Origin: Dokdonella sp.
GTDB taxonomy: Bacteria; Pseudomonadota; Gammaproteobacteria; Xanthomonadales; Rhodanobacteraceae
Assembly (NCBI GenBank): GCA_023228465.1
Contig: JALOBC010000004.1
Location: forward strand, 62,001 to 126,000
Direction: 5' to 3'
Length of the DNA stretch: 64,000 bases
The notes under the pieces are model-generated. The model made no database searches and had not been told where the DNA came from. It was given only the letters and a program-made list of their open reading frames with translations. Shown here piece after piece: positions 2,937-5,621 of this stretch. Position numbers and translations under genes: made by a program. Position 1 is the stretch's first letter, and every line of letters begins with the position of its first letter.

Positions 2937-3099
2937 CGCGACCCGACGACCGCATGCGGCGCCGCCGGCGGCGTCCACGAGACGCGGATTCACCCCGACC
3001 AGGCACGGCCGCCATGCGGCGTGTCGGCAAGCGCCGCGGCGAACCTTGACGCGGTTCCTATACTACCTGTCTTTTGCTGTATCGACCCCGGAACATCTT

Positions 3100-4965
<1,866 letters not shown>

Positions 4966-4976
4966 GGCCCGAGCTT

Positions 4977-5018
4977 GCCCCGCGCCAACGGCCGCACGTG
5001 CGGCCGTTGGCGCGGGGC
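4977..5018 (+). terminator. Perfect 21-bp palindrome after rpoD, probable terminator
   Basis: The left arm 4977-4997 and the right arm 4998-5018 are exact reverse complements, forming a 42-bp uninterrupted palindrome starting 12 bases after the rpoD stop. An RNA hairpin would have about 19 base pairs and a tight CACGTG turn. Only a short T stretch follows (TTT at 5026-5028), so it is not a classical U-tract terminator. Its position between rpoD and the tRNA gene makes transcription termination or mRNA 3'-end protection the likely role. Confidence 0.65.
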
Positions 5019-5059: not shown

Positions 5060-5367
5060 GGGCCTATAGCTCAACGGTCAGAGCAGGGGACTCATCGAAA
5101 GGTGTCGCCGCGGCGAAAGCCGTGGACGAGAACGGGATGAATTCAGGGAAACCGCAGCGGCGTGGCCGGCGGCAATCCTGAGCCAAGCCGGCGGTACACC
5201 GCCGGAAGGTGCAGAGACTACCTGAGGGCTTGAGTGCCCTTGATGACAGGCTCGAGCGTCCCGCACCCCACCAGCACATGCTGCGGGTGAAGAGATAGTC
5301 CGCGCCGGGGGGAAACCTCCGGATCAAGCGAATCCCTTGGTTCCAGGTTCGAGTCCTGGTGGGCCCA
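5060..5367 (+). tRNA. ileX: tRNA-Ile (CAU anticodon, lysidine type), split by a group I intron
   Basis: The two exons (5060-5095 and 5331-5367) join into a complete cloverleaf. The acceptor stem is GGGCCTA (5060-5066) with TGGGCCC (5360-5366). The D stem is GCTC/GAGC and the anticodon stem is GGGGA (5086-5090) with TCCCT (5333-5337). The seven-base loop reads CTCATAA with anticodon CAT at 5093-5095. The T arm is CCAGG-TTCGAGT-CCTGG (5343-5359), and the discriminator is A5367. CCA is not encoded. The sequence matches minor tRNA-Ile that decodes AUA after TilS converts C34 to lysidine, rather than initiator or elongator tRNA-Met. The intron lies between positions 36 and 37, directly after the anticodon. 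Confidence 0.93.
5096..5330 (+). ncRNA. Group I self-splicing intron (IC3-like) in the tRNA-Ile(CAU) anticodon loop
   Basis: The 235-nt intron lies after anticodon U36 and ends in G5330, as group I introns do. P1 pairs the anticodon CAT (5093-5095) with an internal guide GTG (5102-5104), with a U-G pair at the splice site and a GAAA loop between. P2 is a hairpin at 5108-5125 with a GAAA loop. The P4-P6 region carries AGCCAAGC (5181-5188). P7 is GACTA (5216-5220) with TAGTC (5296-5300). P9 is a GAAA-capped hairpin at 5305-5322. These blocks closely resemble the tRNA-Ile(CAU) intron of Azoarcus, the best-studied IC3 example. There is no homing-endonuclease frame, so it would depend on RNA-only mobility or vertical descent. 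Splicing activity is inferred. Confidence 0.93.
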
Positions 5368-5621
5368 TATCCTGATGGTCATCCCCCTTGGTGGGGCAGG
5401 CATGGTCTGGGCTGTGGCGCCCGCGAGCGCCTGGCCGGATGCGCACGCTGCCCGGCCGGCGGTGCGTGTGTGCATGCCGTCATCGACTCGACCTGTGGCG
5501 CCGGCCAGCATTCGCGATGTATCAGGCGGTTGAATGCAGCGTCACGACGACGGCCGGGCGCGGAGCGACGACCATCCCTGCCGCGTCGAACGGCAGGGAA
5601 CGCGTCGAGCGTGCAGCGAAT

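What the first reader, a model, noticed from the sequence alone, without database searches (positions are those of the whole stretch)
5060..5367. Group I intron in the anticodon loop of tRNA-Ile(CAU)
Two tRNA halves separated by 235 nt join into a perfect tRNA-Ile2 cloverleaf, and the insert has P1, P2, P4-P6 strands, P7 pairing and a terminal G characteristic of group I introns. The 5' splice helix uses the anticodon CAU itself as the substrate for the guide GTG. Such introns in tRNA-Ile(CAU) are best known from Azoarcus; I do not recall one described in this lineage, so it may be a new host. It has no open frame, so it must persist without a homing endonuclease.
Basis: partly seen in the sequence, partly recalled or inferred. 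Interest (0 to 1): 0.85.

Follow-up and report, generated by a model that had tools for sequence, protein, structure and literature searches.

The report
Self-splicing intron splitting an essential tRNA

Summary
Two exons (5060-5095, 5331-5367) flank a 235-nt insert (5096-5330) that Rfam calls a group I intron (59.4 bits, cut-off 50). The joined exons fold as a CAT tRNA. No intact tRNA-Ile(CAU) was found in this 99.98%-complete genome; its other two CAT tRNAs are elongator Met and fMet. Anticodon CAU pairs with guide GUG, as described for Azoarcus (PMC6274277). No homing-endonuclease domain was found.

It is not an isolated new host. In the family (Rhodanobacteraceae, inferred), 50 of 233 genomes carry it at the same nucleotide, 138 have an intact gene by pattern, none has both, 45 show neither. 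A capped pattern scan of many species gave 76 such genes in 120 stretches, mostly Gamma- and Betaproteobacteria, also Planctomycetota. tRNA-Ile2 introns are in print for Acidovorax and Burkholderia (PMC8450103).

Intron and rpoD distances correlate (r 0.72), but presence changes at least 19 times on an rpoD tree, and only 2 of 8 genera form intron clades. Best reading: old, ORF-less, Azoarcus-like introns, inherited with repeated loss or replacement of the tRNA gene. Splicing was not tested.

The parts
5060..5095 (+). 5' exon of tRNA-Ile(CAU), through anticodon position 36
   Evidence: joined exons fold as a CAT tRNA
5093..5104 (+). P1: CAU+C (5093-5096) with GGUG (5101-5104); U-G wobble at the 5' splice site; GAAA loop
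   Evidence: paired in 99.0% of 196 cells (49 family sequences) and 100% of 448 cells (112 sequences)
5096..5330 (+). group I intron, 235 nt, no endonuclease domain found, last base G (omega G)
   Evidence: RF00028, 59.4 bits; boundaries; the 50 tRNA-Ile hits found in the family by RF00028 all end in G
5108..5125 (+). P2 with GAAA loop (5108-5114 / 5119-5125)
   Evidence: 89.9% of 784 cells; 7 of 7 pairs show a change on both sides
5133..5263 (+). P3 (5133-5139 / 5257-5263)
   Evidence: 97.8% of 727 cells; 6 of 7 pairs with a change on both sides
5143..5210 (+). P4 (5143-5147/5177-5181), P5 (5152-5155/5169-5172), P6 (5182-5184/5208-5210), P6a (5188-5194/5199-5205)
   Evidence: P4 98.9% of 560 cells, P6a 92.8% of 777; 112 sequences; P5 79.6% of 196 and P6 100% of 147, family only
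5216..5300 (+). P7 pseudoknot helix, GACUA 5216-5220 with UAGUC 5296-5300; P8 at 5264-5268/5285-5289; insert 5221-5256 between P7 and P3
   Evidence: P7 100% of 560 cells (nearly invariant, 1 of 5 pairs with a double change); P8 99.2% of 505
5305..5322 (+). P9 with GAAA loop (5305-5310 / 5317-5322)
   Evidence: 90.7% of 669 cells; 6 of 6 pairs with a change on both sides
5331..5367 (+). 3' exon of tRNA-Ile(CAU); no CCA encoded (next bases TAT)
3046..4965 (+). rpoD (frame as listed; start codon not settled), upstream neighbour of this tRNA gene
   Evidence: rpoD also lies in 36 of 50 intron loci (1.5-kb flanks) and 49 of 60 intron-free loci fetched

Best explanation
[quoted passage not shown] Expected mechanism: the gene is transcribed with the intron. 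Anticodon CAU pairs with the intron's guide GUG (P1, with U-G at the cut). A guanosine bound at P7 attacks after the anticodon. The freed 5' exon attacks after the terminal G, joining the anticodon loop. The tRNA is then presumably given CCA and lysidine (a TilS match is encoded). Shown by sequence: insertion point, helices, U-G, terminal G, exon cloverleaf, no intact copy found. Inferred: transcription, splicing, modification. Without an endonuclease gene it persists by inheritance at the rpoD-linked locus, with repeated loss or replacement of the tRNA gene; this last clause is weaker (about 0.6) than the identification, to which the confidence below refers.
For: RF00028 above its gathering score over the full model. 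Helices kept, with covariation, across 112 sequences. Joined exons fold as a CAT tRNA. No intact tRNA-Ile(CAU) found in G000; its two other CAT tRNAs are eMet and fMet. TilS match 147.5 bits, cut-off 93.6. Family complementarity: 50 with the intron, 138 with an intact gene, 0 with both, 45 with neither, of 233. Intron distances follow rpoD distances: Mantel r 0.72, 0 of 2000 permutations as high, 31 rows. The 11 introns of genus g7 form a clade (100/99.7) and the 7 of g2 form one with unstarred support (94/95.5); for the six other genera tested, monophyly is not rejected, p-AU 0.149-0.497. rpoD lies nearby in 36 of 50.
Against: No splicing or expression data. The promoter scan found no sigma-70 match. 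P1, P3, P4 and P7 hardly vary within the family; covariation comes mostly from outer helices and from sequences outside the family. On descent: only 2 of the 8 genera with two or more introns form a clade in the best intron tree. Presence changes at least 19 times among 77 rows. By global identity the window intron is closer to genus g2 (90%) and to Luteimonas aestuarii of another family (89%) than to its own genus (86% and 85%); over aligned bases only, same-genus L051 is closest at 92%. Some lateral transfer is therefore likely; the AU tests have little power on introns of about 240 nt.
Confidence: 0.92

Rival explanations
1. The gene is a dead, intron-split copy, and a functional tRNA-Ile(CAU) lies in a gap of the 99-contig assembly.
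For: The assembly is in 99 contigs; no Ile(GAT) gene was found either; such genes usually sit in rRNA operons that collapse in assemblies (recalled).
Against: Genome 99.98% complete. Helices and both splice signals are intact. By pattern, 50 of 50 intron genomes in the family lack an intact copy while 138 others have one; 50 independent assembly gaps are not credible.
Confidence: 0.03
2. The introns are spread mainly by horizontal movement (reverse splicing into the CAU anticodon loop, or transfer of the whole tRNA gene), not by descent.
For: Patchy presence, at least 19 changes on the rpoD tree. Six of 8 genera do not form clades in the best intron tree. The window intron is as close to g2 and Luteimonas introns as to introns of its own genus. 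Another intron of this genome does seem to travel on a conjugative element.
Against: Mantel r 0.72 with rpoD, clades for two genera, monophyly not rejected elsewhere. rpoD nearby in 36 of 50 loci. No match to the window intron in 72,556 plasmid records. The same GUG could pair with the CAU of Met and fMet tRNAs, yet of 56 RF00028 hits in the family 50 are in tRNA-Ile(CAU) and 6 in tRNA-Leu, none in Met or fMet.
Confidence: 0.3
3. A non-self-splicing insert removed by a protein enzyme, like archaeal bulge-helix-bulge introns.
For: The place next to the anticodon resembles the usual position of protein-spliced tRNA introns (PMC4033280).
Against: A full group I core with P7, terminal G and a P1 U-G pair; 235 nt is longer than protein-spliced tRNA introns, described as under 100 nt in PMC4033280.
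Confidence: 0.02

Closest known systems
Azoarcus sp. BH72 pre-tRNA-Ile group I intron
   Same: Same host tRNA; anticodon CAU is the tag read by a 3-nt guide (PMC6274277, passages read); [quoted passage not shown] Here P2 and P9 carry GAAA loops; that Azoarcus does too is recalled.
   Different: Longer here: 235 nt against a ribozyme of about 200 nt (PMC6274277), with an extra stretch 5221-5256 between P7 and P3. The Azoarcus sequence was not in hand; among the 16 betaproteobacterial introns fetched, the closest is 64% identical (L112, a Rhizobacter MAG) and the 205-nt one of a Sterolibacterium MAG is 52% (L143).
tRNA-Ile2 introns of Acidovorax and Burkholderia (tRNAscan-SE 2.0 paper, PMC8450103)
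   Same: Group I introns that hide tRNA-Ile2 from tRNA finders; 36 bacterial genomes lacked an fMet or Ile2 prediction for that reason (passages read).
   Different: Betaproteobacteria there; this is a gammaproteobacterial family, with presence and absence scored over 233 genomes.
Cyanobacterial/plastid tRNA-Leu(UAA) and cyanobacterial tRNA-fMet introns
   Same: Group I introns in the anticodon loop (PMC4033280, PMC8450103, passages). A tRNA-Leu(UAA) intron is the second one in this genome.
   Different: Different host tRNA and, for Leu, a different guide. None of the family's 56 RF00028 hits is in an fMet or Met gene.

Membership tests
Group I intron (Rfam RF00028) | Covariance-model score above the curated cut-off | tested here: met
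   59.4 bits against 50, full model, E 1.5e-12
Group I intron (Rfam RF00028) | Catalytic core P3-P8 with P7 pairing across the pseudoknot | tested here: met
   P3 97.8%, P4 98.9%, P7 100%, P8 99.2% of cells paired in 112 sequences; for P7 slid controls reach at most 41%. P5 keeps only 79.6% in the family.
Group I intron (Rfam RF00028) | U-G wobble at the 5' splice site and terminal (omega) G | tested here: met
   U5095 with G5102; G5330 is the last intron base. In the set outside the family the terminal G was part of the search pattern, so it is no independent test there.
Group I intron (Rfam RF00028) | Self-splicing with exogenous guanosine | not testable with these tools
   Needs in vitro transcription
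Azoarcus-type tRNA-Ile(CAU) intron | Insertion directly after the CAU anticodon; 3-nt guide GUG | tested here: met
   the CAU tag and 3-nt guide of Azoarcus from PMC6274277; its exact insertion point is recalled
Azoarcus-type tRNA-Ile(CAU) intron | Sequence homology to the Azoarcus intron itself | not tested
   The Azoarcus record was not fetched; only other betaproteobacterial introns were compared
Subgroup IC3 | Subgroup-specific core features or model score | not tested
   No subgroup models on hand; the IC3 label for Azoarcus comes from a reference title seen in PMC3984707
Homing group I intron with endonuclease gene | Encoded homing endonuclease | tested here: not met
   No Pfam match at E up to 1 for the two antisense frames of 87 and 97 aa that overlap the insert; longest stop-free stretch within it 78 aa

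The most novel reading that the evidence does not exclude
These ORF-less introns are an ancient lineage fixed in the sole copy of an essential tRNA. They survive not by homing but because the gene cannot be lost, only replaced whole: intron-bearing and intron-free tRNA-Ile alleles alternate near rpoD. In the same genome a sister intron in tRNA-Leu(UAA) appears to ride a conjugative element that cut the host's own tRNA-Leu and may supply the intron-bearing replacement. Replacement of essential tRNA genes would then be a transmission route for bacterial tRNA introns that lack endonucleases. A further possibility, for which one crude count gave no support, is that an intron in the anticodon loop shields the gene from integrases that use it as an attachment site.
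Probability: 0.25. Interest if true: 0.6.

Novelty: new member of a known kind. Interest (0 to 1): 0.38.

Why it matters
A cell with this arrangement depends, by inference, on a ribozyme for an essential tRNA and for reading AUA codons. ARAGORN missed the gene here and tRNAscan-SE is said not to be designed to detect such genes (PMC8450103), so these genomes look as if they lacked tRNA-Ile2. A family with 50 intron-bearing, 138 intact and no double genomes, mostly at one linked locus, is a good natural test bed for how group I introns without homing endonucleases are kept, lost and moved.

Tried and rejected
Intron as a shield of an integrase attachment site: I counted duplicated 3' halves of tRNA-Ile. 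One of 50 intron genomes (G023) and 8 of the other 183 have two; Fisher p 0.69. No support, not excluded.

Mobile-element source for the window intron: no match in plasmids. The phage hits (11 records, at most 30% of the query; Vibrio and Synechococcus phages) I take as core-helix similarity to other group I introns; I did not fetch them.

Clean intron loss as the only explanation of intron-free alleles in the genus: not enough. Of 12 intron-free genomes whose gene was read, 7 carry an allele differing from the window exons by 11-12 of 73 bases (D- and T-stem changes), 4 differ by 1-2, and 1 (L290) has an extra D-loop base and was not comparable by position. Replacement of the whole gene is therefore likely in some lineages.

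Lateral transfer proven by tree conflict: not shown; no AU test rejects genus monophyly. Strict descent: not shown either (6 of 8 genera are not clades).

Promoter and terminator scan: nothing found. A box of the form TAYCAT, TAKCAT or TATAAT lies 14-21 bases upstream of the tRNA in 32 of 50 intron loci; the form was chosen after seeing the sequences, so it is only a hint.

Errors of mine: one search placed the P5 and P6 strands wrongly; one search corrected them and then failed on a third, wrongly set helix (inner P8) before the full set was counted. One search also ended in an error after its first table. The pattern was wrongly written and its zero result means nothing. I first took all 6 tRNA-Leu introns for Leu(UAA); one search shows that one (G175, L206) is in Leu(CAA). 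Rows dropped: rpoD rows under 180 codons, introns over 330 nt in the tree, and introns over 300 nt and L102 and L181 in the pair counts. The exact patterns may miss diverged genes: 45 of 233 genomes have neither and were not resolved.

Full report
WHAT IS THERE. At 5060-5367 a tRNA gene is split into a 36-nt and a 37-nt exon by 235 nt. ARAGORN sees no tRNA in the window, but the joined exons give a cloverleaf with anticodon CAU. The insert matches the Rfam group I intron model over its whole length at 59.4 bits (cut-off 50, E 1.5e-12). CAU+intron folds better than all of 200 dinucleotide shuffles (z -3.5); the minimum-energy fold already shows P1, P2, P3, P6a, P8 and P9, and part of P4/P5.

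STRUCTURE. P1 is CAU+C with GGUG around a GAAA loop, with U-G at the cut; P2 and P9 also end in GAAA loops. Over 112 distinct sequences (window included), P1 100%, P2 89.9%, P3 97.8%, P4 98.9%, P6a 92.8%, P7 100%, P8 99.2% and P9 90.7% of cells are standard pairs, against 1-58% when partners are slid by one to three columns. Double changes occur in 7 of 7 pairs of P2, 6 of 7 of P3 and of P6a, 3 of 5 of P4 and of P8, 6 of 6 of P9, but only 1 of 4 of P1 and 1 of 5 of P7; for those two, conservation and not covariation speaks. Within the family (49 distinct sequences) P5 keeps only 79.6% and P6 100%. No endonuclease domain was found.

IS IT THE ONLY COPY? The genome (3.42 Mb, 99 contigs, 99.98% complete) has 43 tRNA hits, and ARAGORN gave an anticodon for all 43. 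Two carry CAT: one an elongator Met, one an fMet (assigned by recalled hallmarks). Patterns for an intact tRNA-Ile(CAU) give none, and no Ile(TAT) was found; no Ile(GAT) was found either, so the assembly may lack some rRNA-linked tRNAs. A TilS match is encoded (147.5 bits, cut-off 93.6). So AUA decoding very probably depends on this gene.

FAMILY. The family was inferred from contigs equal in length to named records: Dyella mobilis, D. psychrodurans, D. monticola and Rhodanobacter fulvus, with identical introns and the family name Rhodanobacteraceae. Of 233 genomes, 54 have an RF00028 hit, 56 hits in all: 50 are in tRNA-Ile(CAU) at the same nucleotide, 5 in tRNA-Leu(UAA) and 1 in tRNA-Leu(CAA). 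G000 and G175 have an Ile and a Leu intron each. An independent exon pattern also finds 50 of 233 genomes. 138 of 233 have an intact tRNA-Ile(CAU) by an exact pattern; no genome has both; 45 have neither. In the window's genus, 3 of 16 carry the intron, 12 of 16 an intact gene by a looser pattern, and G042 (77% complete) shows neither.

LOCUS AND DESCENT. rpoD lies in the fetched stretch of 36 of 50 intron loci (1.5-kb flanks) and of 49 of 60 intron-free loci (longer stretches, up to several kb between them). On a quick rpoD tree of the 77 rows with at least 180 codons (31 with intron), the intron state changes at least 19 times. Intron and rpoD distances correlate (r 0.72, 0 of 2000 permutations, 31 rows). 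In the best intron tree of the family, g7 (11 introns, 100/99.7) and g2 (7 introns, 94/95.5, not starred) are clades; g1, g4, g19, g22, g23 and g24 are not, but the AU test rejects monophyly for none of the six (p 0.149-0.497). By global identity the window intron is closest to g2 introns (90%) and Luteimonas aestuarii of another family (89%), against 86% and 85% for its own genus; over aligned bases the same-genus L051 is closest (92%). Intron-free alleles in the genus are of two kinds: 4 within 1-2 bases of the window exons and 7 that differ by 11-12 of 73, plus one not comparable by position. Both clean loss and replacement of the whole gene are likely, and some lateral transfer.

BEYOND THE FAMILY. 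76 have a 5' exon ending in CAT and an insert of 205-382 nt; 26 look like other tRNAs with G at position 36; the other 21 are cut off, weak or unclear. By record name: 40 Gammaproteobacteria, 16 Betaproteobacteria, 9 other Pseudomonadota, 7 Planctomycetota (among them Singulisphaera acidiphila DSM 18658), one each of Opitutia, an Actinomycetes MAG and candidate division FCPU426, one unassigned. Eight of the 76 were checked with Rfam and all match RF00028, five above the cut-off and three just below it (46.9-49 bits). MAG assignments may be wrong.

LITERATURE. Ten searches. Passages read, no paper whole: PMC3984707, PMC11835236, PMC4033280, PMC6274277, PMC8450103, PMC6125680. PMC8450103 reports 36 bacterial genomes in which group I introns hide fMet or Ile2, with tRNA-Ile2 examples in Acidovorax and Burkholderia. 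A 2014 table lists cyanobacteria, alpha- and betaproteobacteria for group I introns in tRNA (PMC4033280). I saw no paper naming such introns in Rhodanobacteraceae or Planctomycetota in these listings and passages, but subscription journals and supplements were not searched.

VERDICT. What is worth keeping is the scored presence and absence near one gene, the exclusion of intact and split copies, and the sister intron in tRNA-Leu(UAA) that seems to lie on a conjugative element in the same genome.

Noticed in passing
L033:1846-2365 (G000 contig 68): A second group I intron of this genome lies in a tRNA-Leu(UAA) gene (39.2 bits). About 200 bases upstream is an intron-free 5' half of tRNA-Leu(UAA), cut after the anticodon stem; downstream are TrbI and CagX/TrbG. 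The stretch is 99.7% identical over 5.9 kb to a genome of another genus (G020). No intact Leu(UAA) tRNA was among the 43 read. It looks like a conjugative element that broke the host tRNA and may supply an intron-bearing substitute; its far end was not read.
   Followed up: partly
L206 (G175 contig 55): A group I intron in a tRNA-Leu(CAA) gene: the 5' exon ends in CTC and faces a GAG, so the 5' splice site would have C-G instead of the usual U-G pair (RF00028 30.3 bits, below the cut-off).
   Followed up: no
L344:2995-3295 (plasmid NZ_CP139688.1): An intron-bearing tRNA-Leu(UAA) gene sits about 650 bases from aac(3)-IId on a Klebsiella plasmid (RF00028 36.8 bits, below the cut-off). 1281 of 72,556 plasmid records hold a distant match to the tRNA-Leu intron query, many of them enterobacterial; one record was read.
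   Followed up: partly
G039 contig 23 (L290), G158 contig 26, G044 contig 22, G052 contig 12, G060 contig 43: The 3' half of tRNA-Ile(CAU) occurs twice, 1.2-21 kb apart, as if it were an attachment site of integrated elements. G025 (L243) instead has a second near-complete copy 186 bases away whose acceptor end is cut.
   Followed up: partly
window 4978-5017: A perfect 20-bp inverted repeat without a T run follows rpoD and precedes the tRNA gene; it may end rpoD transcription (read; not called by the scan).
   Followed up: no
window 5368-5370: The window copy encodes no CCA end, while many relatives of the same gene do.
   Followed up: no
45 of 233 family genomes: Neither an intact nor an intron-split tRNA-Ile(CAU) was found by the patterns; some (G001, G005, G011) still have a matching 3' half.
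   Followed up: no
L143:523-666: A Polynucleobacter-1 RNA (RF01718, 94.3 bits) in a Sterolibacterium MAG, outside the genus of its name.
   Followed up: no
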